Below, piece after piece: positions 3,270 to 57,659 of a DNA stretch of 64,000 nt (position 1 is its first letter; each line of letters begins with the position of its first letter). The DNA lies in the NCBI GenBank assembly GCA_035048485.1, contig CM068581.1, positions 3,506,430-3,570,429 on the forward strand. The letters are read 5' to 3'. A program made the position numbers and the translations under genes. The notes below the pieces were generated by a model, which saw only the letters and a program-made list of their open reading frames with translations, did not search any database and was not told the DNA's origin. Origin of the DNA: Pteria penguin. Its lineage: Eukaryota; Mollusca; Bivalvia; Pterioida; Pteriidae.

Positions 3270-6200
3270 CTTCAACACACTGTATCTTATGTATCATCTC
3301 TAAGACATTTTCTCTAACACACCATAACAAAATATATCATCAGTAAGATATCTTCTTCAAGATTTCCTCTATAACATCATTTCAGAAATATTATCTCTAA
3401 CACTACATTTCCGACATATCTCTAACACATTATCTCTAACACTTCATCACCGACATATCATCTCTAACATATTATCTCTAACACTTCATCTCCGACATAT
3501 CTCTAACACATTATCTTCATCACCGACATATCATCTCTAACACATTATCTCTATCACTTCATCACTGAGATATCATCTCTAACACATTATCTCTAACACT
3601 TCATCACCGACATATCATCTCTAACACATTATCTCTATCACTTCATCACCGACATATCATCTCTAACACATTATCTCTAACACTTCATCACCGACATATT
3701 ATCTCTAACATATTATCTCTAACACTTCATCACCAACATATCATCTCTAACACATTATCTCTATCACTTCATCACCGACATATCATCTCTAACACATTAT
3801 CTCTAACACTTCATCACCGACATATCATCTCTAACACATTATCTCTATCACTTCATCACCGACATATCATCTCTAACACATTATCTCTAACACTTCATCA
3901 CCGACATATCATCTCTAACACATTATCTCCATCACTTCATCACCGACATATCATCTCTAACACATTATCTCTATCACTTCATCACCGACATATCATCTCT
4001 AACACATTATCTCTAACACATCATCACCGACATATCATCTCTAACACATTATCTCTATCACTTCATCACCGACATATTATCTCTAACACATTATCTCTAT
4101 CACTTCATCACCGACATATCTCTAACACATTATCTCTATCACTTCATCACTGACATATCATCTCTAACACATTATCTCTATCACTTCATCACTGACATAT
4201 CATCTCTAACACATTATCTCTATCACTTCATCACTGACATATCATCTCTAACACATTATCTCTATCACTTCATCACTGACATATCATCTCTAACACATTA
4301 TCTCTAACACATCATCACCGACATATCATCTCTAACACATTATCTCTATCACTTCATCACCGACATATTATCTCTAACACATTATCTCTATCACTTCATC
4401 ACCGACATATCTCTAACACATTATCTCTATCACTTCATCACTGACATATCATCTCTAACACATTATCTCTATCACTTCATCACCGACATATCATCTCTAA
4501 CACATTATCTCTAACACTTCATCTCCGACATATCATCTCTAACACATTATCTCTATCACTTCATCACCGACATATCTCTAACACATTATCTCTATCACTT
4601 CATCACCGACATATCATCTCTAACATATTATCTCTAACACTTCATCTCCGACATATCTCTAACACATTATCTCTATCACTTCATCACCGACATATCTCTA
4701 ACACATTATCTCTAACACTTCATCACCGACATATCATCTCTAACACATTATCTCTAACACTTCATCTCCGACATATCTCTAACACATTATCTCTATCACT
4801 TCATCACCGACATATCATCTCTAACATATTATCTCTAACACTTCATCTCCGACATATCTCTAACACATTATCTCTATCACTTCATCACCGACATATCATC
4901 TCTAACACATTATCTCTATCACTTCATCACCGACATATCATCTCTAACACATTATCTCTAACACTTCATCACCGACATATCATCTCTAACACATTATCTC
5001 TAACACATCATCACCGACATATCATCTCTAACACATTATCTCTAACACTTCATCACCGACATATCATCTCTAACATATTATCTCTAACACTTCATCTCCG
5101 ACATATCTCTAACACATTATCTCTAACACTTCATCACCGACATATCATCTCTAACACATTATCTCTATCACTTCATCACCGACATATCATCTCTAACATA
5201 TTATCTCTAACACTTCATCACCGACATATCATCTCTAACACTTTATCTCTAACCATTCATCATGGACATATCATCTCTAACACATTATCTCTATCACTTC
5301 ATCACTGACATATCATCTCTAACACATTATCTCTAACACTTCATCACCGACATATCATCTCTAACACATTATCTCTATCACTTCATCACCGACATATTAT
5401 CTCTAACACATTATCTCCATCACTTCATCACCGACATATCATCTCTAACACATTATCTCTATCACTTCATCACCGACATATCATCTCTAACACTTTATCT
5501 CTAACACTTCATCTCCGACATATCATCTCTAACATATTATCTCTAAAACTTCATCACCGACATATCATCTCTAACACATTATCTCTAACACTTCATCACC
5601 GACATATCATTTCTAACACATTATCTCTATCACTTCATCACCGACATATCATCTCTAACACATTATCTCTATCACTTCATCACCGACATATCATCTCTAA
5701 CACATTATCTCTAACACTTCATCACCGACATATCATCTCTAACACATTATCTCTATCACTTCATCACCGACATATCATTTCTAACACATTATCTCTAACA
5801 CTTCATCACCGACATATCATCTCTAACACATTATCTCTAACACTTCATCACCGACATATCATCTCTAACACATTATCTCTATCACTTCATCACCGACATA
5901 TCATCTCTAACACATTATCTCTAACACTTCATCACCGACATATCATCTCTAACACATTATCTCTAACACTTCATCACCGACATATCATCTCTAACACATT
6001 ATCTCTAACACTTCATCACCGACATATCATCTCTAACACATTATCTCTATCACTTCATCACCGACATATCATCTCTAACACATTATCTCTAACACTTCAT
6101 CACCGACATATCATCTCTAACACATTATCTCTATCACTTCATCACCGACATATCATCTCTAACACATTATCTCTAACACTTCATCTCCGACATATCATCT

Positions 6201-16600: not shown

Positions 16601-17285
16601 ATTCTGGTATGACCCCATGTCACACATTTATCTGTAGTGATTCTGGTATGACCCCATGCCACATGTTTATCTGTAGTGATTCTGGTTTGACTCCATGCCA
16701 CATGTTTATCTGTAGTGTTTCTGGTATGACCCCATGTCACATGTTTATCTGTAGTGATTCTGGTATGACCCCATGCCACACGTTTATCTGTAGTGATTCT
16801 GGTATAACCCCATGCCACATGTTTATCTGTAGTGATTCTAGTATGACCCCATGTCACATGTTTATCTGTAGTGATTCTGGTATGACCCATGCGACATGTT
16901 TATCTGTAGTGATTCTGGTATGACCCCTTGTCACACGTTTATCTGTAGTGATTCTGGTATGACCCCATGTCACATGTTTATCTGTAGTGATTCTGGTATG
17001 ACTCCATGACACATGTTTATCTGTAGTGATTCTGGTATGACCCCATGTCACATGTTTATCTGTAGTGATTCTGGTATGACTCCATGTCACATGTTTATCT
17101 GTAGTGATTCTGGTATGACCCTATGCCACATGTTTATCTGTAGTGATTCTGGTATGACCCCATGTCACATGTTTATCTGTAGTGATTCTGGTATGACCCC
17201 ATGTCACACATTTATCTGTAGTGATTCTGGTATGACCCCATGTCACATGTTTATCTGAAGTGATTCTGGTATGACCCCATGTCAT
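7628..17285. repeat. 39-bp minisatellite, 9.7 kb, open in a frame on both strands
   Basis: About 245 copies of a 39-bp unit. Because 39 is a multiple of three, the unit stays open on the plus strand (repeat MFICSDSGMTPCH) and on the minus strand (repeat ITTDKHVTWGHTR). Long frames run for up to 323 codons, broken where a unit has gained or lost a few bases, for example at the recurring CCCCATGTCCCCATGTCAC junctions. There is no signal peptide, domain or non-repeat flank. The array sits in one intron of the carrier gene, so I call it non-coding satellite. Confidence 0.95.
10250..16070. repeat. Higher-order 1.7-1.9 kb duplications inside the 39-bp array
   Basis: Blocks of variant units recur in the same order. 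The junction near 10574 returns near 12244 and 14167 (spacings 1670 and 1923 bp). The block at 11062 returns at 12732 and 14655. The block at 12986 returns at 14909. A block with CATATTTATC and TGATATAACC returns near 11690, 13614 and 15498. Rare variants such as a CACAAGATTATC unit and an ATCTTGAGTG unit are preserved across copies, so these duplications are recent. Confidence 0.85.
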
Positions 17286-22564: not shown

Positions 22565-22978
22565 GACACTTCAACATCTGTGGATGGAATAGAGCAGAAA
22601 AAGTCTATGTTTGACATGCTATTCCCTGAAATGTTAGCCAACTTTATCGGCAGTATGTTAGCAGACAGCATGTTATATCCTCTGGAGACAGTCCTTCATA
22701 GGTTATATATACAAGGCACAAGGACCATCATAGACAATACCGACACAGGCACAGATGTCATACCTATCTCACCAGGCTATCGGGGGGTGCTGGACTGCTT
22801 CCATTCTATAGTGGTAGAGGAGGGCATGTCTGGTTTCTATAAAGGCTTTGGAGCACTTATATTACAATATGCATTACAAGCTGCTATACTTAGACTATCT
22901 AAATATCTGTTTGAGAAGATCTCACATGAACTGTATCCCAAAAAATCCAATGGACTTCGACCTTCTCCCAAACCAATG
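22565..22978 (+). CDS. SLC25A46: SLC25A46-like carrier, C-terminal carrier repeat exon
   Basis: A 414-bp exon (138 codons, phase 0) with acceptor TTTGTAG and donor ATG|GTAAAG. It holds the most diagnostic part of the protein: FPEMLANF, then YPLETVLHRLYIQGTRTII with DNTD, then GFYKGFGALILQYALQAA near the C-terminal helix. The YPLETVLHR box is the carrier-signature remnant that defines SLC25A46 within SLC25. The tail after the last helix (SNGLRPSPKP) is longer than I recall for vertebrate proteins. If the donor were not used, the frame would end at a TGA at 22991 after four extra residues. Confidence 0.95.
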
Positions 22979-23082
22979 GTAAAGTTAATATGATTTTGTA
23001 ATTAATTGTGATGGTATACTATTTACTTGTAAACTGCAAATTACTGAAATCTATCTATTTTTCTTTTTCTGTTCTTCTGCAG

Positions 23083-29714: not shown

Positions 29715-30540
29715 AGACAAAATCCTTTTTGATCATTGTAAAGCTATGTGTGACTTCAATTTAAGCATTGATAAAAATGTAATCAAGTATTGCAATGCTG
29801 TTTTTAGCAACAGTAACTTCAATTATTTTCGTCTATTAAAAATTCTAACGAAGTTATTGAAAAATTCCGTTTGAGAAAGTTTGAGGCAAATAACGTTTTT
29901 ACTTCTGATTTTTCGACACTATATACCTCTCTACTTCATAACTTAATGAAAACCAAATTGTTGTCACGCTGGTGTTTCAACAGAGAGTCTAAATCATAAC
30001 TGTACTTCAGTTACATCTGGATTTTTCTTTTCTTTGACAAACAATATAAACATAAATATCGGACTTGTAATGAGTTCCGTAATGCCATCACATTTGTGAT
30101 GGATAATATTTATGTATAATTTAGTGGCAAGACTTATCAACAGATTATTGGGATTCCTATGGACACTAACTGCGCTCCCCTTATAGCAGATTTATTTTTA
30201 TACTGTTACGAGAGAGACTTTATGCATTCCATTCAAACCTCTAAACGTTTCGACCTTATTGATAAGTTCAATGATACCTCTAGATATCTCGATGATATTT
30301 TAGTTATCGATAACCCTGAGTTTGAAAATTATATTACTGACATTTATCCACCTGAACTTCAATTAAACAAAGCCAATACTTCCGACCGGGAAACCCCTTT
30401 TTTGGACTTAACTATTAAAATTATTAACAACAGTATTTAACAACATATATGATAAACGTGACGACTTTCGATTTCCTATTGTAAATTTCCTTTATCTAGA
30501 TGGTGATGTCCCCAGACTCTCATCTTATGGTATTTATGTA
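29715..30540 (+). pseudogene. Penelope-like RT fragment, relative of the 37.6-kb Naiad
   Basis: The decayed reading runs from a segment like KYCNAVFSNSNFNYF through motif A (SDFSTLYTSL) to motif B, here IGIPMDTNCAPLIADLFLY with Gly changed to Asp, and then motif C RYLDDILVIDN, in an open stretch at 30159-30440. It ends DKRDDFRFPIVNF and SYGIYV at 30540. Frameshifts and a TAA (near 29996) break it. Order and wording are very close to the element at 39.1-40.1 kb. Its Ser at NKANTSD stands where that element has an in-frame UGA. No endonuclease part is present, so it is 5'-truncated. Confidence 0.85.
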
Positions 30541-30801
30541 AAGATAGTGGATGAATCCAAACCATAAGTCCGAAAATCATGAAATCATACAAAATCAGTC
30601 AAAATGAAAATAAAGTGGAAAATAACAAAACATTGAAGAGCATATGTGAACCCCTGTGATGGAGTGAGATCAGCAAGCATCTCCTGCTTGTTAGCAACAC
30701 CCGTCACATATACCCAGTAGAAAGAGTCAAATCGTGTAAATTCCATATACATGTATATTTATATATGGAGAAGTCAAATTAGGTAACAATCTAGTATTTG
30801 G
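30537..30801 (-). mobile_element. PLE family B tail, inverted copy
   Basis: Reverse complement of the 3' tail found at 31976-32281: it begins at GTAAAGAT (element 3' end) and runs through AACACCCGTCACATATACCC to GGTAACAATCTAGTAT. A stretch containing CTCTCCCCGGGCACC, present in the other tails, is missing here. It stands head-to-head with the RT fragment to its right, a typical PLE inverted arrangement. Confidence 0.85.
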
Positions 30802-30804
30802 TAT

Positions 30805-31975
30805 TTACACAAATAAATTAAATTTAAAACTTCCATATTCGTACTGCATTCCAAAAATGCACAAAAATCCGTACAAACAACGCTTTATCGCTGGTTCCTC
30901 GAAGTGTTCCACAAAATTTGTATCGATGCTACTCACAAAAATATTATCAGAAATTAAATCTGGCCTTCATAGATATTGCGAAACAGTATATTCCAGAAGT
31001 GGAATTAATCAAATGTGGATCCTTAAAAATTCAGAAGAGTTGTTAGAAAATCTAAAATCAAAAAGTTTTACTAAAATTCACTCTACCAAGTCTTTTGACT
31101 TTTCGACTCTTTACACAACGATCCCTCATCAGAAATTAAAAGACGGATTAGCGGAAATTATTCAAAATGCATTTAGTAGTAAAAACGGAAGCCGCAAATT
31201 CAAATATTTAGTAATAGGCCACGATAAAACTTACTTTGTTAGGGAAAATTCTGATTCCAAACATAAAAACACTGAAACAGCTGTCATCCAGATGTTGAAC
31301 TTTCTTATCGATAACATTTTTGTGGTGTTTGGAGGTAAGGATTTTCAACAAATTGTCGGCATTCCAATGGGCACTAACTGTGCTCCGCTTCTGGCTGACA
31401 TATTCCTTTACTCATACGAAGCTGAATTCATTCAGTCTTTGCTTTCGCAAGGAAAAAAAAACAATTGGCTCTTGGCTTCAATTTTACTTAAAGATATATA
31501 GATGACTTGCTTTCAATTAATAATCCTTCATTCGCGGGTTACCTTAGCATCATCTATTCAAGTGAACTTGAGGTCAAAGAAACCACAGAAAGTAGTAATT
31601 CTACTTCGTATTTAGATATTATGTTGTCTTTCGACATTAATAGTCAATTGAACACCTCACTCTATGACAAACGTGACGATTTCATTTCGCTATCACAAAC
31701 TTTCCTTTCATAAGTAGCAACATTCCATCATCGCCCGCATACGGCGTATTCATATCTCAGTTAATACGTTATTCCAGAGCATGTTCAAATTACAGTGACT
31801 TTGTTCTGAGGGCTAGGCGACTTTCAGTTAAGCTGCTCAACTAGGGTTTATATGTGCTAGACTAGCAACGTCACTGAGGAAATTCTATGGTCGTTACGAG
31901 ACTCTTATTACTCCATATGATATCTCGTTATCCAGACTTTTAAATGATATTCTGGACTGAGACCGATTCCGATCA
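30805..31975 (+). pseudogene. Penelope-like reverse transcriptase, family B, 5'-truncated
   Basis: The reading starts in LPYSYCIPKMHKNPYKQRF, continues with FIAGSSKCSTK, motif A SFDFSTLYTTIPHQKL, then IVGIPMGTNCAPLLADIFLY (motif B). A frameshift in an A-run near 31455 moves the reading to another frame, where motif C RYIDDLLSINN follows. A second shift occurs near 31690, after which PAYGVFISQLIRYSRACSN and a thumb-like LRKFYGRYETL appear, ending near DILD. There is no C-terminal GIY-YIG, as in EN-minus PLEs or PLEs with N-terminal nuclease. It is inactive through at least two frameshifts and stops near 31845-31870. Confidence 0.9.
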
Positions 31976-32281
31976 TTTTACACAGATTTGACACCTTCTA
32001 TACTAGAAGGTTACCTACTTCGACTTCTCCATATATAAATACATATGGAATTTACACGATCTGACTCTTTCTACTGGGTATATGTGACGGGTGTTGCTAG
32101 CAAGCAGGAGATGCTCACTCTCCCCGGGCACCTGATCTCACTCCATCACAGGGGTTCACATATGCTCTTCAAGTAGACATATTTTGTTATTTTCCATTTG
32201 TTTTTCATTTTCACTGATTTTGTATGTCCTCTGATTTTATGATGTTTGGACTTGTGCTTTGGATTTATCCATCATCTTTAC
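31976..32281 (+). mobile_element. PLE family B 3' tail
   Basis: The non-coding end directly follows the RT stop. It contains TTCTATACTAGAAGGTTACC, GTGACGGGTGTTGCTAGC, GATGCTCACTCTCCCCGGGC and CACAGGGGTTCACATATG, and ends ATCCATCATCTTTAC. The same tail recurs at 36822-37118, 46829-47127, 56503-56800 and, shortened, 30537-30801, all stopping at the same terminus. I take this as the true 3' end. Confidence 0.88.
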
Positions 32282-32780
32282 ATTATAAGGTACGCAAGGG
32301 CCTGTTCTCTATACGACGGTTTTATTCCAAGGGCCAAACGACTGGCCACTAAGTTGCTCATGCAGGGATAAAGAACGTGTGAAATCCTCACTGAGGAAGT
32401 TCTACGGTCGCTATAGGAATCTTGTACTAAAATATCATGTGCCTCTTTCAAGAATGATTGATAATATTCTGGAATTCGACTAAATAACCTGTTTAGTGAA
32501 CACCAAATATGACTTTATAAACCAGTTTTGTACTTTCGTATGTACAATTAGGAAACCAAAACTTGATTTTGACATGTTTCTTGAGAACTGCTGTGACGGG
32601 TGATGTATGCAGACAGGAGACGCTTACTCTCCCCGAACACCTGGTCTCACCTCGGAATTTTTCAGCATTTCGGGGTTCACAACAGTTCCTTTTTGAAATT
32701 TACACGATTTTGTATCTGTCCTTGGACTTTGAGAATGATTAACGGTTTGGTACTTATTCGATATTGATTGATTATGTCAT
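32282..32780 (+). pseudogene. PLE family C: RT C-terminus plus 3' tail
   Basis: A decayed reading RYARACSLYDG, then RAKRLATKLLMQG and SSLRKFYGRYRNLV, ending LSRMIDNILEFD with a TAA, equals the last part of a PLE RT. It joins the family B terminus directly. Its tail (TGTGACGGGTGATGTATGC, ACGCTTACTCTCCCCGAAC, ACCTGGTCTCACC) parallels the family B tail with many differences, so it is a separate family. No frame upstream of the thumb remains. Confidence 0.8.
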
Positions 32781-35659: not shown

Positions 35660-36430
35660 AACAAGTGCTAAGTATTTAAGTCTAGTGCAAGGGCCACTGG
35701 AACTCCCAACTGACTGCAAACAGTGTCAAAAGTGTTCATTAACTGGATACGATTTTCTACATTACTGGCTATAAAAATAAAATCATTTAAACTGTGGTCT
35801 AAAGTGTTAAAAGCAGAAAATTGTTCTGTGGCCCAGTGTATAAAACATGAAAACTTTTCAAACAGTTTATATATCGAACAACCCAAGGGCAAACATTTAT
35901 CTATGTACAATTTTCCCAAATGGCTAAACCCTAGAGGGCAGAATTCCGCTGGATGTACAGACATTATATCCTTTTTCGCTAAAAAGGCACCTCTCCCGAG
36001 TTTCCCTATAATTTTAACAGTATTGTCAAAACTGGAATAATTTACACTGCTTTCCATTGGGTCAATAAAATGATTAACACTGAAACCTAAGGGAGCCACG
36101 AGATGTGTAATGAGGCGCCATCTCCCTGTTTTTGTGTACTAAGCCAATGGGCGAAATTCGTAGATTAGAAATTAGCATATTAACAAAAGGTTCCATTATT
36201 CGACATTTACTGATTTCTTCATTAATAAAATTTCAAAATAATAAAATCTCAAAAGTATAAAGTTTAGCTGTAGCAAATTCTTTGAAAAAAAAAACCGTGA
36301 ACTCTTGGCCTATGTAATTCCAATCTAAACCCATCCGGAAAAAAAAACATCTTTTAGTGCATTATCATCCTCAGTGTTAGGATATCCAACTAGCATTTGT
36401 TTTAAGACTTCTGTATTACAAGGGAATTAA
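35660..36430 (-). pseudogene. DIRS-type reverse transcriptase remnant
   Basis: Read leftward: LKQMLVGYPNTEDDNALKD near 36420-36350, ISNLRISPIGLVHKN near 36160-36125, then an open stretch 36099-35668 with SSVNYSSFDNTVKIIGKLGR, LAKKDIMSVHPAEF and LGKLYIDKCLPLGCS, then LFEKFSCFIHWATEQFS. DIRS RTs have this order. About six residues normally present between the KDI and VHP boxes (the AFR.LP segment) are missing, which removes part of the palm. The YxDD-like step is also altered (SLNDFIFI). The element is dead. Confidence 0.85.
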
Positions 36431-37600
36431 CCAAGGTTCCAAAGCTTGGCGAGGGAATCTTGGCCAGCGAGGTGTTTGCTGTCTAACTGGACATGGTGTG
36501 CTTGGTCTATAGTGCTGTGCCTGGGGTTGGTCGAACTTGAAGCATGTTATATAAGGATGATTTCCCTTGCATGCCAAGCATTTGTTTGAAAATTTTCAGG
36601 GCTTTTTAGACATCTTTGTAGTTAAAGTCATAACATGGGAGGGCTGGTGCGCTCTCTGAGTATAACTGTTTGAAACTTGACATGTAAATTAACCAGAGCT
36701 CCCCGTCCACAGTATCCCAAGGAGTGGATGGGTTCAGAGCTTTGCGAAGTCTATGCTGTGTATCATAATCTTTCCAACCCTAACCTGTCTACCTTGATGC
36801 TGCTATTCTTTGACACCTCTGTATTTGACACCTTCTATACTAGAAGGTTACCTACTTCGACTTCTCCATATATAGATACATATGGAATTCACACGATTTG
36901 ACTCTTTCTACGGGGTATATGTGACGGGTGTTGCTAGCAAGCAGGAGATGCTCACTCTCCCCGGGCACCTGATCTCACTCCATCACAGGGGTTCACATAT
37001 GCTCTTCAAGTAGACATATTTTGTTATTTTCCATTTGTTTTTCATTTTCACTGATTTTGTATGTCCTATGGTTTCATGATTTTTGGACTTGTGGTTTGGA
37101 TTTATCCATCATCTTTACAATTCAAGTGTTTTAGTAAGCCCTGTATTTAATCGGGATGCTTCGTAATAAAGATGCTCAAGAAAGTTATGAATGCATTTGT
37201 CCAAGTCTCAATATCTCTTATTTGTTTGTGAAAGGGTTTTCTTTCTTTAAAATCAATTCCCATTCACAATCAAGGGCTTTTGAGATGCCATTGTAGGAGT
37301 GTCAGTTTTTGTGATTATCGTCTCAATGGGTTGCCCTTGAAGCGACTTGGGAAGGAAGACATCACATTTTCACTAGCAACTGGCGCCAGCTGGAGGAACT
37401 CCTGTGGAACTGTTGGCCAACTGCTGTTACTGTCTGTGATGGGTGTGGCCTGGCATAAGAAGACTTGGAGTCTCTCTTTGTGTTCCTTGGTGGCATTCCT
37501 GAATCATGTTTTATTAATTGAAATATGTGTAAGACAAGAATTTTATGTTGTTCACCTTTATATATATATTCTGGCATGCACTGAGTTTAACATAGAAATT
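36431..37600 (-). pseudogene. Probable DIRS 5' / gag region, disrupted
   Basis: Minus-strand readings rich in Ser, Pro, His and Asn (HSTIDQAHHVQLDSKHLAG near 36500; PPRNTKRDSKSSYARPHPSQ near 37470) follow the order expected for gag upstream of DIRS RT, but gag is too variable for a firm call. A PLE tail (36822-37118) interrupts it. The right boundary with the Naiad element is not clear and lies near 37500-37610. Confidence 0.4.
36822..37118 (+). mobile_element. Solo PLE family B tail nested in the DIRS remnant
   Basis: Starts in TTTGACACCTTCTATACTAG and ends ATCTTTAC, near-identical to 31980-32281. It has no RT sequence, so this is an extreme 5' truncation. No clear target-site duplication is visible. 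Confidence 0.85.
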
Positions 37601-37613
37601 TCTGACAACTCCC

Positions 37614-37985
37614 ATACAGATTTATCTAACTGTAAAATGTCTTACTTGCCATCATTTAAACTGCAAGTCCAATATTGAATCTTCGGTTAATTGAAATATA
37701 TTTAACACCAAATTAGACAAAGACATAGATTGAAATACTGCCAATGTTATATATGTCATCACTTGAGAAGCTAGAGGATGTGGGGCTCAATATGTCGGGG
37801 AAACTTCTCAAACTTTGAAACAACGTTTTCGGAATCATTCCTATAAAATTCGTAATAATTCACGACGTAAATACCAGAATTTTCTTTATAACCACTTTAA
37901 TAAATACCAACATAATATTAACAATGTGAAAATAACTCCAGTAGAAAATATCTGTAAATTACCATGTGATACGAAATCAGATGTT
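37614..37985 (+). CDS. Naiad PLE: zinc-finger-like start and GIY-YIG endonuclease domain
   Basis: In one frame: TVKCLTCHHLNC, then three TGA codons at 37692, 37731 and 37764, around NVIYVIT, then GCGAQYVGETSQTLKQRFRN and H. IYVI and YVG are the two halves of the GIY-YIG motif, and the R..H after it fits the PLE nuclease helix. In other PLEs the residue after YLIT/YVIT is a Cys of the zinc-binding CCHH set; here it is the UGA at 37764. The UGA at 37731, shortly before NVIY, also falls where Cys is usual. The domain cuts target DNA for integration (family knowledge). The conserved E..WI..L.T..P.GLN box continues after a +1 frameshift at 37986-37990. The start codon is not identified. Confidence 0.8.
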
Positions 37986-40515
37986 AAAAACCGAGCTCTA
38001 CTGGATTAAACAACTACAAACCCCATACCCTCTCGGTCTCAACGACCAAATATATCGACAAGGTAATATTTCTTCTCGTCAGAATAAGATCAATATTTTT
38101 ACATTAAGACATAAAACTATTAGAAAACGTATGTCACATGGTCGTCGTCGTAATCGTAACATCAGAAAACGTAATCGTTTAAATAGGTCATTAAACGATC
38201 TTCTATTTATCGCAAAAAATAATGGCCGTCATGAACTTTTGCATGCACTATCCTCTATTCCGGTAAATAAATTGAAACCTATCCTGGACGAAGCTGATCT
38301 TCGAAGTTTACGCAATTCTGATTGATATAAACTCAATTTGATTATTTTATTTTCATATAATAAACTCATTCCTCGTATTTCGTCTCTTCCACCCAAGCAG
38401 CAATTTCTCAAAATTAAATTTATTAATAAAGGCTTCGATCTACTTAACATTTCTAATATTTTCCGTGATCATAGAGTCACATCTAAAATCCCCCAATATT
38501 TTGAGAATTTAGAACCTCCACTTATTTGTTGCCAGTACAAAAAGCCTATAAGAAATCTTATTTTAAATTATAATAAAGTTACATCTAACCCTGATGTTTC
38601 AGACTCTATTCCTTCGTCGTGTTCTTGTGTAAATTCTAAATATATTTATAAACCGGCAGGTCATGTTATTACTGGTGACCTAAACTGTATTTCGGACAAG
38701 AAATTGCGCACCCTTTTTGGAAAAGGACCTAAATATAGGTTACCGTCCAGGATGGATTTCAATAAATGCCGTGACGTCATAGAAGATGCTTTAACTACAT
38801 ATTGTAAACGTTGGTGTAAAAAAGAACAGGTAAAGGTTCATGCTCTTAATGATTGGAAATTCGAGATTTTAAGAATTGTCGATATCCGTATTAAGAACTT
38901 TACGGAAAATCCGCATTTATTTCAACAGCCTAATACATTGACGGCAAATTCTATTAAAAAGAAGATAGCTGACTTACATGCTAAATATGTCTTTGTTCCC
39001 GCTGATAAAGCAGGTAATAACATAATAGTTGTTTGAAAACTATATTATATTGAAGTACTTAAAAACGAATTAAACTCCACTCATACATATGTGGAAAGCC
39101 CTACCTCAAAAGAGAGCACCTTGCACGATCCCCTCATGACCATGTCCGACTTCAAAATTAAAACTGATAAATCTGATCTACCAACCATGTATTGGCTCCC
39201 AAAACTACATAAAAGTCCATATAAATCACGTTTCATATCTAATTCTAGCCACTGCTCTACTACGGTACTATCGAAACATATTACGTCTGCTCTAACTGCT
39301 ATAAAAGATCATATTATCAAATATTGTGATGTCGCATTTCATAATAGTAACATCAATTACGTTTGGTCGATTAAAAATTCTCATGAAGTTATAGACAAAC
39401 TTCTTTCGCTAAATTTCAAAGCGACTCAAATTTCTACATTTGATTTTTTTACACTTTATACATCTCTGCCTCATGATTTGATTAAAAGCAAGTTGCTGTC
39501 TCTTATACAATGGTGTTTTCACAGAGAATCTAAAACGTACATATGTACTTCTAATAACTCTGGATTCTTTTCCAACAAACAATATACTTCATATAAATAC
39601 TGGACTTGCAAGGAATTATGTAAAGCACTAGATTTTCTCATGAATAATATTTTTGTGCAATTTGATGGCAAGATATATCAACAAATAGTTGGGATTCCTA
39701 TGGGTACTAACTGCGCGCCTCTGATAGCAGATTTATTTCTTTATTGTTATGAGAGGGATTTTATGGTTTCTATTAAAAAATCAAAACGTTTTGACCTCAT
39801 TGACAAATTTAATAATACTTGCAGATATCTGGATGACATTTTGGTTATCGACAACCCTGAATTCGAGCAATTTATATCAGAAATATATCCACCAGAGCTC
39901 ACATTGAATAAAGCTAATACTTGAGATAAATCTACACCTTTCTTAGATTTAAACATCAAAATTATCAACAACCTAATATATACTAATATTTATGATAAAC
40001 GTGAGGATTTTGGATTTCCTATTGTAAATTTCCCTTACTTGGATGGCGATGTCCCTCGACTCCCATCATATGGTATCTATATATCTCAATTAGTTCGATT
40101 TGTCAGAGGCTGCACCGATGTTTTGGACTTTCATAAACGAAATTTACAAATTACTACTAAACTTTTAACTCAGGGTTACAGATATCACAAGCTAAGAAAA
40201 ACATTCTGCAAATTCTTCAGATCTTATTCAGAACTTCTATCTAAATTTGGAAATATTTCTTTTCAACAGTATATATCCAATGGAATTTCCCATCCTAATT
40301 TTTACGGTGATCTCGTATATAAACTAAGGAAAGTAAAAGGCTCCGATAACGTTATTTTATCATGTAATAAAATAGTCAAACGTCTCCTAAATAGACAATA
40401 TGATATTGAGATCATCAAAAAAACTATAGGTCTTGTATTTGGCCCCTCTACAGCCTTATGCAGACTTTTACTTGAACGTTGCACGCTGACTAACAGGGCG
40501 GTAGGGACTATATGA
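37986..40515 (+). CDS. Naiad PLE: CxC linker and reverse transcriptase, with UGA (Sec) codons
   Basis: One frame runs from ELYWIKQLQTPYPLGLN (end of the nuclease) to a TGA at 40513. Landmarks are the CSC linker motif (38620-38628), PADKAGNNIIVV at about 39000-39033, YWLPKLHKSPYKSRFIS, motif A TFDFFTLYTSLPH near 39435, motif B GIPMGTNCAPLIADLFLY near 39690, motif C RYLDDIL with catalytic Asp pair at 39832-39837, and a thumb ending near 40515. UGA interrupts at 38323, 39034 and 39922. The one at 39034 follows NNIIVV, where PLE RTs commonly have Cys (VVVC.+YY). The one at 39922 (NKANT-UGA-DK) is Ser in the fragment at 30.4 kb. No TAA or TAG occurs. Reading through as selenocysteine is the simplest explanation; recent decay is the alternative. 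Confidence 0.85.
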
Positions 40516-40558
40516 CGGGCCTTGTCCAAACCTCTTTCAGAGGAGACATGGTCCTGAA
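40512..40558 (+). promoter_or_regulatory. Form-2 SECIS element overlapping the terminal UGA
   Basis: The sequence folds as a SECIS. The 5' quartet strand is UGAC at 40513-40516 (preceded by A, giving AUGA), and the 3' strand is UGAA at 40555-40558, so tandem G.A pairs form. Helix II pairs 40517-40526 (GGGCCUUGUC) with 40545-40554 (GACAUGGUCC): ten positions with one G.U and one U.U. Unpaired CAAA follows at 40527-40530, eleven nucleotides after the quartet to the first loop A as usual. A mini-helix CCUCU/AGAGG (40531-40535 with 40539-40543) closes a UUC loop, making it form 2. Its role is to recruit the Sec-insertion machinery in eukaryotes. Confidence 0.88.
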
Positions 40559-41030
40559 CCTCGTCCCCTCTGACTGTTAGTCGGGACTCCTACAGATCTA
40601 GGGTCTTAGCTCGCTTTCAGACTGGCAGAGCACGGTTAATTATGTTGATGTCGCATATATTTTTATACCATTATGTGTTTTACAATACCTTACGTGTTTA
40701 TATTTTTATGACCTCTCAATATGCGATACCTGTTGACCCTTGTTCTTTACATGGAGGATTATTTATAAATTTTTAAATGTACATCTTCTGATTGTTCTGC
40801 TGTTACGGTGAGTGGGAAGGTGGGCCGGTAAACCGGTTAACAACACCATTTGTTTGGCTTTTGTCAAATTAAATGACCCTCCTAAGTCGGTATCGTAATT
40901 GCACTACAATCAAATATTTTTGTATTGTGTTAAATGTTCTATTATATTATTTATATTCATGTATTGTATAGCTCCATGGTGACTTCTGCCACGTAACTGA
41001 GCCGGTAACTCCTCTTTTTTCTTGAATTTA
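40559..41030 (+). other. Naiad 3' UTR
   Basis: Non-coding sequence after the SECIS, with GGCAGAGCACGGTTAATTAT at about 40624. The part from 40618 on is shared with the copy at the right edge of the window. Further on are GGGCCGGTAAACCGGTTAAC (a short palindromic stretch) and CCACGTAACTGAGCCGGTAA, which may be near the element end. Confidence 0.55.
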
Positions 41031-42225
41031 CAGATTTATAATTACAATTTGATGAAATATAAATTACTCAAATATCAACAAACAGATCATTATTACAACC
41101 TGGAAATGGTTGGTAAATAGAATACTACAATAGAAATTGAAAAGATTATATGTACTCATGCAATGTCTTCGACTTAATCGGACGACCTCAATAAAATATT
41201 TCTATTTCTCATGTAAGTACAGAACTTTTAAGTATAGAACTTATAAAGTAATAATTTTAATGCAAGATCAAAATATATAAAGGAAATAATTTTTATAAAG
41301 ACTTCCCTTTTCCACTGCGACGATCTCCACTCCAGGCTGCCTGCCAACCTCGTGGCCCAATCCAATTCAGGCTAAATTACAATCAGGGTGATATAAAAAC
41401 TCTCAAAAATGACAGTCAGAAATAAATTTGTAAACCAAAAGTATGAAAGGCCCCGAGCAAAGATACCAGATGGTGACAGATTTTTTTTATTACTTGAATT
41501 GTTAATCTTGCAGCTTGAGAAGATTGAACGGAAAAGAAAGTGGGGATCGAGTTTGTTGCCTACGGGGACATTCGTATTTCACCAACACATATTGGTTTTG
41601 CATATGAACCCCACCTTCTCGTAGGTGCAATTTCTTCAGAAGATTGTGACATTGAACAGTACTATAAATCTAAACTAGACGACATTATACCTTGTAGAGA
41701 ACAAATTCATAATGTGTACTGTGCTTATAATTTCGTATTTACAACTGTAAACTTTAATATTGATAACAGATTTACATGAATACATGCATTTTGTTAATTT
41801 GTTTCAACAAACAAAAAGATGAAAAGGTGAAATTACGTACATTATTTCGTAAAAATGACGCATAAAAGGAAATCCGCGAAACTCACCCATTAAAATGTAA
41901 CACCTCAACTGAGTTGAGTATGGTTAAATCGACCTCAACTGAGGTAGGTCTCACCTATTTCGTGACGGCTATTTGAGGAGTATACTCAGTTGAGTTCACC
42001 TCAGCGATTTGAATTGAGTATTGAGGTTGATACTTTTAAAATTTTGGTGACGGCCGGGCCGGATTTTAGTTTCATGAAGTATATACCGGTAGCTTAAATA
42101 GGTCTTGAGAAAAAAGTGCACAGCTTAAACTAGACACGAATCATAGAAAAATGCAAACTACATAAATTATTATTTGAATTTTTCATGTTTTATTCCGTAC
42201 TTAAAATACATATACATAATATTAT
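41031..42225. other. No gene recognised; short inverted repeat at 41905-42000
   Basis: Open frames of 70-80 codons at 41409-41779 match nothing I know. At 41907-41925 CCTCAACTGAGTTGAGTAT is nearly palindromic, and its reverse complement ATACTCAGTTGAG stands at about 41981. This may be the trace of a small inverted-repeat element. Nothing else is seen. Confidence 0.4.
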
Positions 42226-46828: not shown

Positions 46829-47127
46829 GAGATGATGGATAAATCCAAAGCACAAGTCCAAAAATCATAAAACCAGAGGACATACAAAATCAGTGAAAAT
46901 GAAAAAAACAAATGGAAAATAACAAAATATGTCTACTTGAAGATCATATGTGAACCCCTGTGATGGAGTGAGATCAGGTGCCCGGGGAGAGTGAGCATCT
47001 CCTGTTTGCTAGCAACACCCGTCACATATACCCAGTAGAAAGAGTCAGATCGTGTAAATTCCATATGTATTTATATATGGAGAAGTCGAAGTAGGTAACC
47101 TTCTAGTATAGAAGGTGTCAAATCTGT
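46829..47127 (-). mobile_element. Solo PLE family B tail
   Basis: Full tail in minus orientation, from GATGATGGATAAATCCAAAG (element 3' end) to ATAGAAGGTGTCAAATCTG. It joins LINE-like sequence directly on its right. Confidence 0.88.
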
Positions 47128-47935
47128 ATAATTATACAGAATTTAAAGGGTGTGTAATGGACAAGGGGAACTTTTTTACATAAGGTCCGGCATCCCTCAA
47201 GGCGAGGCTCATTCGCCATTGAAATACTCTCTTTGTGTGAACGATTTTAATCTTTTTTTTTAATGGAAAATAACTGTGAAGGTATGGATCGAATTAGGTC
47301 CCCTTAATTTGATCTTGACTATGTATGCAGATTACAAAGTGTTATTCGTTGAATCTACTTCAGACTTGTAAAATTTATTAGATTTAATTAGAGGTATATT
47401 GTAAAGCCTGGAATCTGTCAACGCTGCAAAATCTAAAATTGTTGTTTACAGAAATGGAGGGAGATTGAGGCAGAATGAGAATCGGTACTATGACAATAAC
47501 AAAATTGGAGTTGTAGATAGTTTTAATCATTTGGGTATTGTTTTAAAGTTCATTGGTAAATTTCGTACTACGCAGCAGATCACAGCAGAACAAGAGAGAA
47601 AGGCCATCCTTGGTTTAAAAAAATCGTGTAAAGATGTAACTTTTATGTAGAAACTCAGTTCGATTTGTTTAATACGTATCTGAACAGGTCATCATTTAAA
47701 GTTACCACCAAATGAACGTAAATGCATAAATTGTGATAAAACTGAAGATAAATTCCATTTTAATTTAAAGTGCCCCTCTATGCAGATCTTCTAATTACAA
47801 TTCTAAAAGATATTACGTGTGTCGACCCTCATCATTGACGCCAATTCAACTTTTGTCTTCTAATAATATTTCAAAGCTAAGAAATTTAAGTAGATTTTTG
47901 TATTTGGCTTTTAAACGTAAAAATTAAATTTGTTT
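47128..47935 (+). pseudogene. LINE fragment 1, internally deleted
   Basis: A decayed reading with SGIPQGEAHSPLKYSLCVND, a mutated YADD box (MYADYKVLF near 47320), then VDSFNHLGIVLKFIGKFRTT in an open stretch 47465-47650. It jumps directly to the C-terminal zinc knuckle (RKCINCDKTEDKFHFNLKCP near 47710) and SSNNISKLRNLSRFLYLAFK. Compared with LINE copy 2 it lacks about 200 residues between the palm and the knuckle, and it carries several frameshifts. Confidence 0.8.
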
Positions 47936-48930: not shown

Positions 48931-49149
48931 TACATTTAGTGATTATAAAAACAATGATTACTTATTCTTCAGGTTTTTCTTTATGCAAGTCACGTGATTT
49001 AGTTACTCGGGAGTAAATGAGAAGTGTTCATACTATGTTCATTTAAAGACTAGGTTTAGCAGTGGTGGATTCAAAAGCGGGGATCTACTTACCTGATCAT
49101 GACACAAGACATTTACATAATTTAACAATAATAACAAATAGGAACCAGG

Positions 49150-52102
49150 GTTGATTTTATAGAGAATGACATATTAACAGATGACATAAGAGATTTGATG
49201 GGCAGTTTTGAATATGAAAATGATTTAGATATTGGGGTTAGAAAAAATATGGACAATACAATTAATGCTTTTGGCAGAAACTTACTCAATTTATGTAAAT
49301 CAACAGGACTTAGAATAGTTAATGGAAGGCATCCGGGGGATCCCGAGGGTAGTTATTCATTTTGTGAGGCCAGAGGGACAAGCCTAATTGACTACGTTTT
49401 AACCGAAGCAAAGTATTTTAAATTCATAGTAGACTTTTCGACTGGTAACTTTACTACCTTTTCTGATCACGCATCTATAATCTTTGGACTGGACATTGAT
49501 GTTAGTATTAACCGTATCACTGACAATGAAGAAAGTGCATGCGAAGGTAGATGTTTGGCTAAGTCAGTAAAATGGGCAGATAGAAATACTGAACACATTA
49601 GAGAAGTGTTACTGCAAAATATATATTGTTTTAATGACTTAGTATCCATAGATATTAAATGTCAGGATGATGTTGATAAATGTGTAAATAGTTTTGTGAA
49701 GCTATTAATAATAATGTTTTACCCTATTGTGATGTACATGTAAATAGAATTAATACTCACCCAAGAAGCTGTGTGAAAAATGATAATGTTGTCAAAACGG
49801 ACAAACCTTGGTTTAATGAACCATGTAAACGTAAATATAATGAATATAAGAGTGCATTGTATAATTTTAATAAATGTAAATCCCCTTTCAACCATTCTGT
49901 ACTAGTTGAGAAAAAAGCAGCATATAAGAAAATGGAGCTTAGATTGAAGAGGCAGTATCAGCGTCATGAAGGCGATATGATTGAGTATTTAAGAAAACAT
50001 AATCCTAAGCAATTTCATAAATATTTTGCTAAGCGTAAAACTCATGTCTCAGATAAAATAAATTTAGACCAGTTTGTTGAACACTTTAGAAAATTGGGCG
50101 AAAATTTGATAAATAAAAATGTTAATACAACATGTTTTAACGTTCCTGAGCATGCAGTGTTTGAGGAACTTGATGCTTGTATCACAGAAAAAGAAATTGA
50201 ATACGCTATTAAAAACTTAAAAAGAAATAAGAGCTGCGGGGTAGATTGCATTGTGAATGAATTTTTTATAGATTGTAAAGATATAATTTTACCCCACCTG
50301 GTTGTGTTTTTAACTCCATTTTCAAATCAGGATTCTTCCCACAGTCTTGGTCAGAGGGTTGTATAATTCCAGTTTTTAAAAAGGGAGATGTCAATGATCC
50401 AAATAATTATAGAGGAATAACACTTGTCAGTTGCATGGGGAAATTGTTTACAGCAATTCTTAATAAAAGATTATTGGAATGGGACAAAAACTATAACGTT
50501 ATAACTGATGCACAGTTTGGTTTTAGACCTGGTATGGATATTCCACTGTTGATGCTATTTTTGTACTTCAGTCGTTAATTAATAAAACTTTAAAGAAAAA
50601 GGGTGGTAGACTCTATTGTTGTTTTATAGATTATAAAAAGGCTTTTGACCTAATTGATAGATCAAATCTTTGGTGCAAACTAATAAAGCAGGGTATCCAG
50701 GGTAAAATGTTCAAATTTATCCAGTCTCTCTATGAAAATGTTAAATCTTGTGTAAAACACAAAGGGGTTTTATCAGATTATTTTAAAAAACAATATCGGT
50801 TTATTTCAAGGTGAGGTATTATCACCGATTTTTGTATTCTCTATATGTCAATGATTGTGAGTCACATTTTATTAGTGAACATTGTACATCAATTGAAATT
50901 AATTTGATCAACTTATTTTTGTTAATGTACGCTGATGACATGGTATTGTTCGCTGAAACACCACATAACTTGCAACATATGCTAGACTCTCTACATAGTT
51001 ATAATGACATTTGTAAACTTACATTAAATGTTGACAAAACTAAAATTATGATTTTTAGAAACGGTGGTCAAATAAAAGATAACGAAAATTGGCAATATAA
51101 TGGTAGAAATATTCAAATAGTAAATCAATTTAGCTACCTCGGTATGCTTTTAAACTATAATGGAAAGTTTAACGTCACGCAAAAGCATGCAGCTGATCAA
51201 GGAAGAAAAGCATATTTCGCAATTTCTAACAAATTAAAAAACCATAATTTTAACACTGAAACACAATGTTCTATTTTTGATACATATGTATATAGTATTC
51301 TTAATTATGCCTCTGAGGTATGGGGTTTCCATAAAGCCCCAGATGTTGAAAAACTACATATTGTTTTTTTGTAAAAAGGTGTTGGGTGTAAAGAAAAATA
51401 CATGTAATGCTTTGGTATATTATGAACTTGGCAGACTTAAAGCTTCCTTTACACATTTTACGAAAACTTAAAATCATAAAATTTTGGGTGAAATTGAAAA
51501 ATACTGATAATTGCATTCTTAAATCTTGTTTACAAGACAGAGTATTATTCTGTGATGATTGGGTGCTTAATATTAAAGCAGAGCTATGTAAACTTGGGCT
51601 TGGATATATTTTTGAGGAAGATCATGCTGATAACAATTTATATAAGATAATTGAACAAAGATTTTTTGATGTATATAAACAAGAGATGTTATCTATAATT
51701 CATAACGTATCAAAAGGTGAAATGCAACAACATCTAGTCTACAATTTTTGTATACAATATTATTTATGTAAGCCAATCGATAATCTATATAAGATATACA
51801 TAGCACGTTTCAGATTGTCATCTCATACGCTTAATATTGAAAATGGACGATATAGAAACGAAATAAGATCTAATAGATTGTGTTCGTTATGTAATTTCAA
51901 TGATATTGAAGACGAATTGCATTTTATACTCACTTGTCCATTTTATCATGATTTAAGACAAATGTATATCAAGCCATACTATTATAGAAAACCCATTGTA
52001 TTTAAATTAGTTCAATTGCTTAGTGTTAATAACGTAAACGAATTACAGAAGTTGGGTAAATACTTGTATATATCATGTAAAAGAAGAAATGATAACATAT
52101 AA
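49150..52102 (+). pseudogene. LINE copy 2: APE endonuclease, RT and zinc knuckle (longest copy)
   Basis: Non-LTR retrotransposon polyprotein broken by several frameshifts. First comes the C-terminal half of an APE-type endonuclease with GSYSFCEARGTSLIDYVLTE and a SDHAS box. Then a linker with KPWFNEPCKRKYNEYKSALY, and RT boxes CIIPVFKKGDVNDPNNYRGI, DAQFGFRPGM, CFIDYKKAFDLIDRS, LFQGEVLSPIFVFSLYVND and the catalytic MYADDMVLFAETPHNLQ near 50930, followed by NVDKTKIMIFR. The end has a CCHC-like knuckle (LCSLCNFNDIEDELHFILTC) near 51890 and stops at 52100. Frameshifts are visible near 49710, 50310, 50535, 50790 and 51375. The 5' half of the endonuclease is missing. I do not assign the clade. Confidence 0.9.
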
Positions 52103-56800: not shown

Positions 56801-57430
56801 AAAATGATAGGAATCGGTCTCAGTCCAGAATATCATTTAAAAGTCTGGATAACGAGATATCATATGGAGTAGTAAGAGTCTCGTAACGACCATAGAATTT
56901 CCTCAGTGACGTTGCTAGTCTAGCACATATATAACCCAGGTTGAGCAGCTTAACTGAAAGTCGCCTAGCCCTCAGAACAAAGTCACTGTAATTTGAACAT
57001 GCTCTGGAATAACGTATTAACTGAGATATGAATACGCCATATGCGGGCGATGATGGAATGTTGCTACTTATGAAAGGAAAGTTTGTGATAGCGAAATTGA
57101 AATCGTCACGTTTGTCATAGAGTGAGGTGTTCAATTGACCATTAATGTCGAAAGACAACATAATATCTAAATACGAAGTAGAATTACTACTTTCTGTGGT
57201 TTCTTTGACCTTAAGTTCACTTGGATAGATGATGCTAAGGTAATCCGCGAATGAAGGATTATTAATTGAAAGCAAGTCAGCTATATATCTGTAAGTAAAA
57301 TTGAAGCCAAGAGCCAATTGTTTTTTTCCTTGCGAAAGCAAAGACTGAATGAATTCAGCTTCGTATGAGTAAAGGAATATGTCAGCCAGAAGCGGAGCAC
57401 AGTTAGTGCCCATTGGAATGCCGACAATGT
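56801..57430 (-). pseudogene. PLE family B RT, C-terminal third, with mutated catalytic box
   Basis: Open minus-strand reading from the IVGIPMGTNCAPLLADIFLY box (57430) through TYRYIADLLSINNP, SSNSTSYLDIMLSFDINGQL and FISQLIRYSRACSN to LSRLLNDILD and a stop at 56820. It is about 95% like the copy at 31.4-31.97 kb but without its frameshifts. The catalytic YIDD of the other copy is YIAD here, so the first metal-binding Asp of motif C is lost. It is 5'-truncated within motif B; the sequence beyond 57430 is unrelated. Confidence 0.9.
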
Positions 57431-57659
57431 GATTATATATGTGACTCACTTACAATTAATATTACTGTCATATATATCGAATAGAAATAGTGAAACACCC
57501 AACACCCGGGAGTACAATGGACCTTGGATCTCATTGAATACATACATACACGCATATATTCATCAATGTACATAAGGTCAGACTAATAGCAAAAGTTGTT
57601 AAGTATTAATGATGGCGATGACAATCATTACATGAATATGAAAATAAAAACATGATACA
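57431..57659. other. No gene recognised
   Basis: AT-rich spacer between the PLE and LINE remnants. It shares about 25 bp near 57510-57535 (inverted) with the microsatellite spacer at 42430. Nothing else is seen. Confidence 0.5.

What the first reader, a model, noticed from the sequence alone, without database searches (positions are those of the whole stretch)
37614..40560. A Penelope-like retroelement that appears to be a selenoprotein gene with six UGA codons
Seen: an N-terminal GIY-YIG domain, CxC motif and RT are interrupted by six in-frame stops, every one UGA (37692, 37731, 37764, 38323, 39034, 39922), with no TAA or TAG in those frames. If the three stops were equally likely, six of six UGA would be about 1 in 700; in AT-rich DNA, TAA should be favoured. 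Catalytic residues of the RT are intact and a SECIS follows. Known: Naiad PLEs with N-terminal GIY-YIG, some encoding several selenocysteines, have been described from clams and spiders. Inferred: this is such an element, nearly intact apart from one frameshift.
Basis: partly seen in the sequence, partly recalled or inferred. Interest (0 to 1): 0.92.

Follow-up and report, generated by a model that had tools for sequence, protein, structure and literature searches.

The report
Jumping gene that needs selenium
This stretch is a broken copy of a many-copy jumping gene (a Penelope-like retroelement) whose better-preserved sister copies spell one long protein interrupted by five "stop" codons that are likely read as selenocysteine, so its spread would depend on its host's selenium machinery; elements of this general kind have, as far as I recall, been reported before.

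Summary
Six in-frame UGA codons, no TAA/TAG between them, and an Rfam SECIS_1 match are there. In 29 sister copies from the same genome, however, the first UGA (37692) is GGA: it is private to this copy. The other five are shared (29-30 of 30 copies each). The copy is not nearly intact: about 90 codons are missing at its start and it has a 14-nt deletion. In 13 of the 30 copies the 1,054-codon frame is complete apart from those five UGA.

An older subfamily, about 72% identical, keeps four of the five; the fifth (39922) is a Ser codon there. Between the subfamilies dN/dS is 0.11-0.15, and 0.07-0.18 in each segment after the third listed UGA, including after the last; shifted frames give 1.2-1.6. 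Three of the five sites fall on Cys columns, two of them the Cys pair of the GIY-YIG motif. Unnamed relatives show these sites as Trp (likely UGA read by code 4) or end exactly there.

Best reading: an N-terminal-endonuclease (Naiad-type) PLE encoding a five-selenocysteine protein, its terminator a UGA inside the SECIS core. Naiad selenoproteins are known (recalled): a new member of a known kind. Sec insertion and host machinery were not tested.

The parts
37635..41023 (+). 5'-truncated copy of the multi-copy retroelement (subfamily A)
   Evidence: Homology to 29 other fetched copies starts at 37635 and ends at the shared 3' end; coding identity to them 97.9-98.7%.
37635..37991 (+). N-terminal GIY-YIG endonuclease part (from family codon 90), own frame; a 14-nt deletion near 37991 breaks the frame
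   Evidence: PF01541 24.6 bits; gap of 14 nt at ref nt 627-640; AlphaFold model mean pLDDT 86, best PDB match I-TevI GIY-YIG domain, prob 0.91 but E 0.12.
37692..37694 (+). UGA private to this copy (U1, family codon 110)
   Evidence: GGA in 29 of 29 other subfamily A copies; GGT/GGC in 5 of 5 covering subfamily B loci; Gly in P0121-P0124.
37731..37733 (+). UGA U2, family codon 123; first Cys of the C-C-H-H motif in relatives
   Evidence: TGA in 29 of 30 copies, TTA in 1; Cys in 21 of 23 relatives aligned; Trp (likely code-4 UGA) in P0121-P0124.
37764..37766 (+). UGA U3, family codon 134; second Cys of the C-C-H-H motif in relatives
   Evidence: TGA in 30 of 30; Cys in 24 of 25 relatives aligned; Trp in P0121-P0125.
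38323..38325 (+). UGA U4, family codon 325, between endonuclease and RT; not a Cys column
   Evidence: TGA in 30 of 30 and 6 of 7 subfamily B loci; Trp in P0001; P0126-P0128 end exactly here.
39034..39036 (+). UGA U5, family codon 562; Cys column in the RT region
   Evidence: TGA in 30 of 30; relatives Cys 91, Trp 13, Arg 1 of 105 covering; 29 of 48 covering proteins in another search end exactly here.
39922..39924 (+). UGA U6, family codon 858; mostly Ser in relatives, UGA seen only in subfamily A
   Evidence: TGA 29, TCA 1 of 30; TCC in 8 of 8 covering subfamily B loci; Ser in 69 and Cys in 9 of 114 relatives with a residue there.
37992..40515 (+). Linker with CxC (SCSC) and reverse transcriptase frame, ending at UGA 40513
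   Evidence: Open except UGA; RT motifs; related proteins P0051, P0060, P0119 match GIY-YIG then RVT_1 (some below the curated cut-offs).
40513..40515 (+). In-frame UGA, likely terminator, inside the SECIS core (AUGA)
   Evidence: TGA in 30 of 30 subfamily A copies and 8 of 8 covering subfamily B loci; the triplet pattern of divergence fades after it.
40504..40567 (+). SECIS element
   Evidence: Rfam RF00031 36.6 bits; 28 of 30 copies over the gathering score (L027 and L028 miss); 26 of 30 copies share one sequence, the window copy differs from it by one base; folds as the expected hairpin, -29.9 kcal/mol, z -1.95, 7 of 200 shuffles fold as well.
37615..37625 (+). Candidate target-site duplication, left (TACAGATTTAT)
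   Evidence: Longest shared word (11 nt) between the two junction flanks; a few bases separate it from each end of the homology, so only a candidate.
41029..41039 (+). Candidate target-site duplication, right (TACAGATTTAT)

Best explanation
Window 37635-41023 is a broken, 5'-truncated copy of a many-copy Penelope-like retroelement, 13 of whose 30 fetched copies carry one 1,054-codon frame with five in-frame UGA codons, and these are likely decoded as selenocysteine with the help of the SECIS that overlaps the end of the frame. Shown by calls: the frame, the five shared UGA, the SECIS match, purifying selection on the segments between and after the UGA, and Cys at three of the five sites in relatives. 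Inferred: the mRNA's SECIS would recruit the host's Sec factors, ribosomes would insert Sec five times and then stop at the next UGA, which lies within the SECIS itself and so closer than the spacing usually needed for Sec; the product (GIY-YIG nickase plus RT) would nick DNA and copy the element's RNA into the site, as in other PLEs (recalled).
For: (1) 148 of 150 site-codons at U2-U6 in 30 copies are TGA, while stops elsewhere in the same frames are TAA 6, TAG 2, TGA 4. (2) 13 of 30 copies have the whole frame from an ATG, with no indel and no other stop. (3) With protein P0127, 139 of 150 scored places have an open frame, as the tool reports it, of exactly 190 codons, the U3-to-U4 distance; stops inside the matches are TAA 11, TAG 3, TGA 3 (my count of its table; the kind of stop at the two borders is not shown there). 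(4) Subfamily B, about 72% identical, keeps U2-U5 and the terminator. (5) dN/dS between A and B is 0.11-0.15 overall and 0.07-0.18 in each segment downstream of U3, including after U6; shifted frames 1.2-1.6; B against B 0.62-0.75 overall. (6) Three of five sites hit Cys columns, of which the frame has 14 in 1,054 positions (P about 2e-5 if sites fell at random). (7) SECIS_1 in 28 of 30 copies and in six older 3' ends at 45-49 bits. (8) Unnamed proteins of other contigs: Trp at U2-U5, or ends exactly at U4 or U5.
Against: No transcript, peptide or selenium-labelling data. tRNA-Sec of the host was not established: the genome search did not complete. The 30 copies are the best matches to the window copy, only about 2% apart, so their agreement alone is weak; the weight rests on subfamily B and on the unnamed proteins. 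dS between A and B is saturated (1.24-1.55). Two of the five sites (U4, U6) are not Cys columns, and U6 is Ser in the sister subfamily. Trp-as-UGA in unnamed proteins is inferred from the pattern, not read from DNA, and those proteins may come from the same or a near species. One subfamily B locus (L045) has TGC at U2 and TAA at U4. 5 of 48 covering proteins have Cys at U5. The SECIS scores only 1.6 bits over Rfam's threshold.
Confidence: 0.9

Rival explanations
1. The UGA codons are ordinary decay in a dead copy that happen all to be UGA.
For: The window copy is broken, and one of its six UGA (37692) is such a private mutation.
Against: Five UGA are shared by 29-30 of 30 copies, four by a subfamily about 28% diverged and probably by unnamed relatives; stops away from the sites favour TAA (subfamily A: TAA 6, TAG 2, TGA 4; subfamily B: TAA 16, TAG 5, TGA 7 over six loci, three of which share mutations; TAA 11, TAG 3, TGA 3).
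Confidence: 0.02
2. The UGA are read, but not as selenocysteine: generic stop-codon readthrough or a Trp-type suppressor inserts another amino acid.
For: Translation past the UGA is implied by selection on downstream segments, and this by itself does not name the amino acid; U4 and U6 are not Cys columns.
Against: A SECIS over Rfam's threshold sits at the end of the frame in 28 of 30 copies, and the Cys columns at U2, U3, U5 fit Sec, not Trp.
Confidence: 0.06
3. The UGA work mainly as a dosage switch: partial termination at U4 gives an endonuclease-only product and little full-length protein, with Sec insertion limiting RT output.
For: U4 lies between endonuclease and RT, is not a Cys column, and is UGA in A and in 6 of 7 B loci; three relatives end there. 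Sec redefinition is described as rather inefficient for most selenoprotein mRNAs (PMC8310308, passage).
Against: No product data. U2 and U3 lie inside the endonuclease, so termination there would give no enzyme. Compatible with, not instead of, the best explanation.
Confidence: 0.12

Closest known systems
Naiad clade of N-terminal GIY-YIG Penelope-like elements (Craig et al. 2021, Mol Biol Evol; recalled, paper not held)
   Same: N-terminal GIY-YIG, CxC linker, C-terminal RT, pseudo-LTR tandem layout, no hammerhead ribozyme match, high copy number; selenoprotein versions recalled from clams and spiders.
   Different: Here seen: exactly five shared UGA, both Cys of the C-C-H-H motif as UGA, a UGA probably gained at a Ser site in one subfamily, terminator UGA inside the SECIS. 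I could not check which of these the paper already reports. Microsatellite targeting was not evident by eye.
Canonical Penelope/Poseidon, Neptune and Nematis PLEs (recalled)
   Same: GIY-YIG endonuclease and PLE-type RT on one frame.
   Different: Their endonuclease is C-terminal (recalled); here it is N-terminal.
Multi-Sec selenoprotein P of molluscs (title in the reference list of PMC8310308)
   Same: Several UGA decoded in one mRNA.
   Different: A cellular gene, not mobile; SECIS elements in the 3' UTR (stated for vertebrates in the passage of PMC3316567; for molluscs recalled).
Poxvirus glutathione peroxidase with SECIS in the coding sequence (PMC8310308, passage)
   Same: SECIS overlaps the coding frame.
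   Different: Here only the left base of the SECIS overlaps the last codons, and the stop codon is the SECIS core UGA itself.

Membership tests
Naiad-type (N-terminal EN+) Penelope-like element | GIY-YIG endonuclease N-terminal to the RT on one frame | tested here: met
   Family frame of 1,054 codons; the window's PF01541 match corresponds to family codons ~128-173 and the RT motifs follow; Pfam finds no RVT_1 in this frame itself. Relatives P0051, P0060, P0119 match PF01541 then PF00078 (both below cut-off in P0051, RVT_1 below cut-off in P0060).
Naiad-type (N-terminal EN+) Penelope-like element | CxC motif between endonuclease and RT | tested here: met
   SCSC in the window and in 26 of the 27 copies that one search listed; columns Cys in 61 and 64 of 67 aligned relatives.
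Naiad-type (N-terminal EN+) Penelope-like element | C-C-H-H ligand motif of the PLE GIY-YIG domain | tested here: met
   Two His invariant in 25 sequences; the two Cys columns are conserved in relatives but are UGA here, so U-U-H-H if Sec is inserted. The motif's role is recalled.
Naiad-type (N-terminal EN+) Penelope-like element | Pseudo-LTRs from partial tandem copies | tested here: met
   L013 345-1074 repeats its own 4176-4905 at 99.7%; several other loci also carry a partial 3' end upstream. The window copy is cut short at its 5' end and shows none.
Naiad-type (N-terminal EN+) Penelope-like element | No canonical hammerhead ribozyme | tested here: met
   Rfam at gathering scores: only SECIS_1 in the window and in 37 loci scanned, L010-L046.
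Naiad-type (N-terminal EN+) Penelope-like element | Insertion bias for microsatellites | tested here: inconclusive
   45 bases of 3' flank shown for the copies look varied by eye, one runs into poly-A; no statistics made.
Naiad-type (N-terminal EN+) Penelope-like element | Insertion-in-fingers domain; grouping with named Naiads in a tree | not tested
   No named reference Naiad was at hand; the tree has none among its rows.
Eukaryotic selenoprotein gene | In-frame UGA aligned with Cys of homologues | tested here: met
   Three of five sites; not for U4 and U6.
Eukaryotic selenoprotein gene | Coding constraint downstream of the UGA | tested here: met
   dN/dS 0.07-0.18 in every segment after U3, including after U6; controls.
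Eukaryotic selenoprotein gene | SECIS downstream of the UGA | tested here: met
   28 of 30 copies over the gathering score.
Eukaryotic selenoprotein gene | Host has tRNA-Sec and Sec factors | not tested
   The genome search with RF01852 did not complete (20 asks, last); the protein factors were not asked for.
Eukaryotic selenoprotein gene | Selenium in the protein | not testable with these tools
   Needs the bench.

The most novel reading that the evidence does not exclude
One triplet with two meanings set by position: five UGA far upstream of the SECIS mean selenocysteine, and the UGA inside the SECIS core means stop, because the ribosome that reaches it unfolds the very element that would recode it. 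The SECIS would thus double as the termination signal, and the element's jumping would be gated by host selenium, with its zinc-ligand pair (U-U-H-H) and RT both built with Sec and a fifth Sec gained at a Ser site.
Probability: 0.35. Interest if true: 0.8.

Novelty: new member of a known kind. Interest (0 to 1): 0.58.

Why it matters
It gives a clean in-genome experiment: thousands of candidate places (4,556 in the first look), two subfamilies, UGA kept at fixed sites while stops elsewhere run towards TAA, and downstream selection in every segment. That makes it testable how a mobile element keeps a costly amino acid, whether Sec replaces zinc-ligand Cys pairs, how Sec sites are gained (Ser codon to UGA), and how a ribosome tells a Sec UGA from a stop UGA when the stop lies in the SECIS. 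It also warns annotators: many predicted proteins of this family are cut at the UGA or carry Trp there.

Tried and rejected
Rejected: six selenocysteines (the first UGA is private); a 1-nt frameshift in an A-run, my own first guess in note 1, replaced by a 14-nt deletion; the ~108 missing codons of note 2, now about 90; note 1's 'U6 private', since 29 of 30 copies have it; an open frame past the terminator as more coding sequence (divergence loses most of its triplet pattern; the in-frame estimates there, 0.38 and 0.60 with 79 codons each, leave this weak).

Led nowhere: the search for related loci in viral contigs gave no relative. Pfam found no family in the 1,054-codon frame of L013 or in the window's RT frame. 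The fold search's only sensible match, I-TevI, has E 0.12. A tblastn line printed nothing; L039-L044 were placed by the blastn mapping and by eye. Papers: searches found nothing; one listed one Orthoptera transposon library (not opened), 59 listed 15 of 20 papers and 61 one, none of them by title on selenoprotein PLEs; two were on SECIS placement. Craig et al. 2021 and Mix et al. 2007 are not held. I read only passages of PMC3316567, PMC4967479 and PMC8310308. The host species was not identified; only the size (838 Mb, 49 contigs) is known. Rows dropped: loci L001-L008 were not analysed. For dN/dS four of seven subfamily B loci were used (L046, L048, L049, L052): L050 and L051 share decay with L049 on one 117-kb stretch of C7, and L045 holds an inserted piece like subfamily A, which is also why its U5 codon is not counted for B. 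Two A copies (L013, L037) stood for A. Only 30 of 40 scored copies (of 4,556 candidates) were fetched. A first dN/dS script crashed and was rerun. The first codon count missed 16 loci on the minus strand and was redone.
Full report
What was checked. The only Rfam match at gathering score in the 64 kb is SECIS_1 at 40504-40567 (36.6 bits, cut-off 35). A seventh in-frame UGA at 40513 lies in that SECIS's AUGA core. Below, U1-U6 are the six UGA in order.

Copies in the same genome. The window lies in an 838-Mb genome held as G000. A DNA search with 37620-40800 scored 40 of 4,556 candidate places, all 97% identical or better; 30 were fetched, one being the window copy. At the six sites and the terminator: U1 TGA 1, GGA 29; U2 TGA 29, TTA 1; U3, U4, U5 TGA 30; U6 TGA 29, TCA 1; terminator TGA 30. 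So U1 is private to the window copy among these. In the 1,054-codon frame, stops away from the sites are TAA 6, TAG 2, TGA 4 (one of these U1), and 13 of 30 copies have the complete frame from an ATG with no indel and no stop but the five UGA and the terminator. That this ATG is the start is assumed. About 90 codons are missing at the start of the window copy, and it has a 14-nt deletion near 37991. Its homology to the others ends at 41023, a shared 3' end. An 11-nt word, TACAGATTTAT, flanks both junctions (37615-37625, 41029-41039), a candidate target-site duplication. Other copies carry a partial 3' end upstream, as pseudo-LTRs; in L013 the two are 99.7% identical.

A wider sample of the same genome. 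P0127, a relative's protein that covers U3 to U4, gave 150 scored places of 3,215 candidates; by my count of the table 139 of 150 have an open frame of exactly 190 codons, which is the U3-to-U4 distance, and the stops inside the matches are TAA 11, TAG 3, TGA 3. The table does not say which stop stands at the two borders.

An older subfamily. Seven loci (L045, L046, L048-L052) belong to subfamily B, 71-74% identical to A at the DNA level. L049-L051 lie close together on C7 and share decay mutations. U2 is TGA in 5 of 7, TGC (Cys) in L045 and broken by a gap in L046; U3 TGA in 7 of 7; U4 TGA in 6 of 7, TAA in L045; U5 TGA in the 6 that count (L045's U5 belongs to an inserted A-like piece); U6 TCC (Ser) in 8 of 8 covering loci, which include the 3' ends L039, L043, L044; the terminator TGA in 8 of 8 covering loci. 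Stops away from the sites in six B loci are TAA 16, TGA 7, TAG 5, some of them shared by the C7 trio. U6 is thus most simply a gain of UGA in A at a Ser codon; the reverse is possible.

Selection past the UGA. Using four B loci against two A copies, dN/dS is 0.11-0.15 over the frame and 0.07-0.18 in each of the segments U3-U4, U4-U5, U5-U6 and U6-end; before U3 it is 0.15-0.28. B against B gives 0.62-0.75 overall (single segments 0.19-1.42) and A against A 0.24-0.31. Third positions differ by 0.35-0.48 and first and second by 0.11-0.23 in the segments after U3; shifted frames give 1.2-1.6; after the terminator the pattern fades (0.13/0.13/0.22 and 0.21/0.12/0.23 over 85 codons in two loci). 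dS is saturated, so the ratios are rough, but the contrast is plain: the lineages that gave rise to A and B were selected for protein sequence past every UGA.

Relatives elsewhere. A protein search with the RT frame listed the best 120 of 223 relatives. The closest one, P0001 (71%), has Trp at U4 and U5 and Ser at U6 and runs on through the terminator with Trp, as expected of a code-4 reading; it lacks the endonuclease part. P0004, P0005, P0007 and P0008 start within eight residues after U5 and end at the terminator. In an N-terminal search with eight hits, P0121-P0124 have Trp at U2 and U3 (P0125 at U3) and P0121-P0124 Gly at U1, while P0126-P0128 end exactly at U4; P0126 starts after U3, and P0127 and P0128 lose similarity at U3. 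In a search with the U4-U5 piece, of 97 proteins 48 reach U5: 29 end exactly there, 13 have Trp, 5 Cys, 1 ends before; 49 do not reach it. Over 105 covering proteins of the first two searches U5 is Cys 91, Trp 13, Arg 1; U2 is Cys 22, Trp 5, Asp 1 and U3 Cys 25, Trp 6. The tree places A, B, P0001, P0002, P0010 and P0011 together and a second Trp group beside Cys-bearing sisters, so Sec at U5 was gained at least twice or was lost again (support values not examined). Reading Trp as UGA is inference, since no DNA of these proteins was at hand, and their species are unknown.

Where the UGA fall. In an alignment with 84 relatives (21-25 of them reaching the endonuclease Cys columns), 14 of 1,054 positions are columns with at least 60% Cys and ten or more rows; three of the five UGA lie on them (P about 2e-5 for three or more at random). 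U2 and U3 are the Cys pair around the strand of the GIY motif; with two invariant His they form what I recall as the C-C-H-H motif of PLE endonucleases. U4 and U6 are not Cys columns. An AlphaFold model of the endonuclease piece has mean pLDDT 86, and its best PDB match is the I-TevI GIY-YIG domain, probability 0.91 but E 0.12; no coordinates were at hand to measure a zinc site.

SECIS and terminator. 26 of 30 copies share one SECIS sequence; the window copy and three others differ from it. 28 of 30 are over the gathering score (L027 and L028 miss). In the whole genome 85 of 150 scored places (28,938 candidates) pass E 1e-3; the six I fetched, all among the first 19 of that list, are 3' ends of older copies with the UGA in the same SECIS place. 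A passage of PMC3316567 gives 51-111 nt as the minimum UGA-to-SECIS spacing from one study; a counter-example in ciliates is noted in PMC4967479 (legend); a coding-region SECIS is known from a poxvirus (PMC8310308, passage). At zero distance the UGA would likely be read as stop; this is inference.

How it likely works. Inferred throughout: a transcript with the SECIS at the end of its frame recruits the host's Sec factors; five UGA are read as Sec; the last UGA, inside the SECIS, stops translation; the endonuclease nicks DNA and the RT copies the RNA there, often incompletely, leaving 5'-truncated copies such as this one.

Known or new. I recall that Craig et al. (2021) described Naiads, with N-terminal GIY-YIG, CxC, pseudo-LTRs and, in clams and spiders, several selenocysteines. 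The paper is not held, and my searches of the held library listed no paper that by its title treats selenoprotein PLEs. By the tested features this is a member of that kind. The terminator in the SECIS, the U-U-H-H pair and the Ser-to-UGA gain may or may not be in that paper.

Noticed in passing
window 29764-30540: A second, decayed relative of the same element (65% to P0001 over the longest stretch), Ser at the U6 site (LNKANTSD); similarity stops before the 3' end of the frame.
   Followed up: partly
window 30740-31950 (+) and 56820-57449 (-): Two partial or frameshifted copies of another PLE, matching the Cys-type proteins P0031 and P0051 best among those tried.
   Followed up: partly
window 31978-32285, 36823-37122 and 46904-47131: Three copies of an unidentified repeat, 96-99% alike, one inverted.
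   Followed up: no
window 49135-52102: Broken frames that look like an endonuclease and RT of a non-LTR retrotransposon (by eye).
   Followed up: no
window 35668-36138 (-): Frame that by eye resembles a DIRS-like or other LTR-type RT (recalled motifs).
   Followed up: no
window 22565-22993: Part of a mitochondrial carrier gene (PF00153, 46.8 bits), perhaps an SLC25A46 relative (recalled).
   Followed up: partly
window 7635-17284: About 243 copies of a 39-base minisatellite, with long open frames on both strands.
   Followed up: no
genome G000: At least 85 SECIS_1 matches at E 1e-3 (150 of 28,938 candidates scored); the six read are retroelement ends, so SECIS-based selenoprotein counts in such genomes may be inflated.
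   Followed up: partly
proteins P0006, P0013, P0014, P0019: A second group with Trp (likely UGA) at U5 and, in P0006 and P0014, Trp at the first Cys of the CxC motif; close sisters have Cys at U5.
   Followed up: partly
proteins P0033, P0098, P0218: PLE relatives filed under bacterial names (Campylobacter sp., a Lucinoma symbiont, PVC group): likely animal sequence in bacterial records.
   Followed up: no
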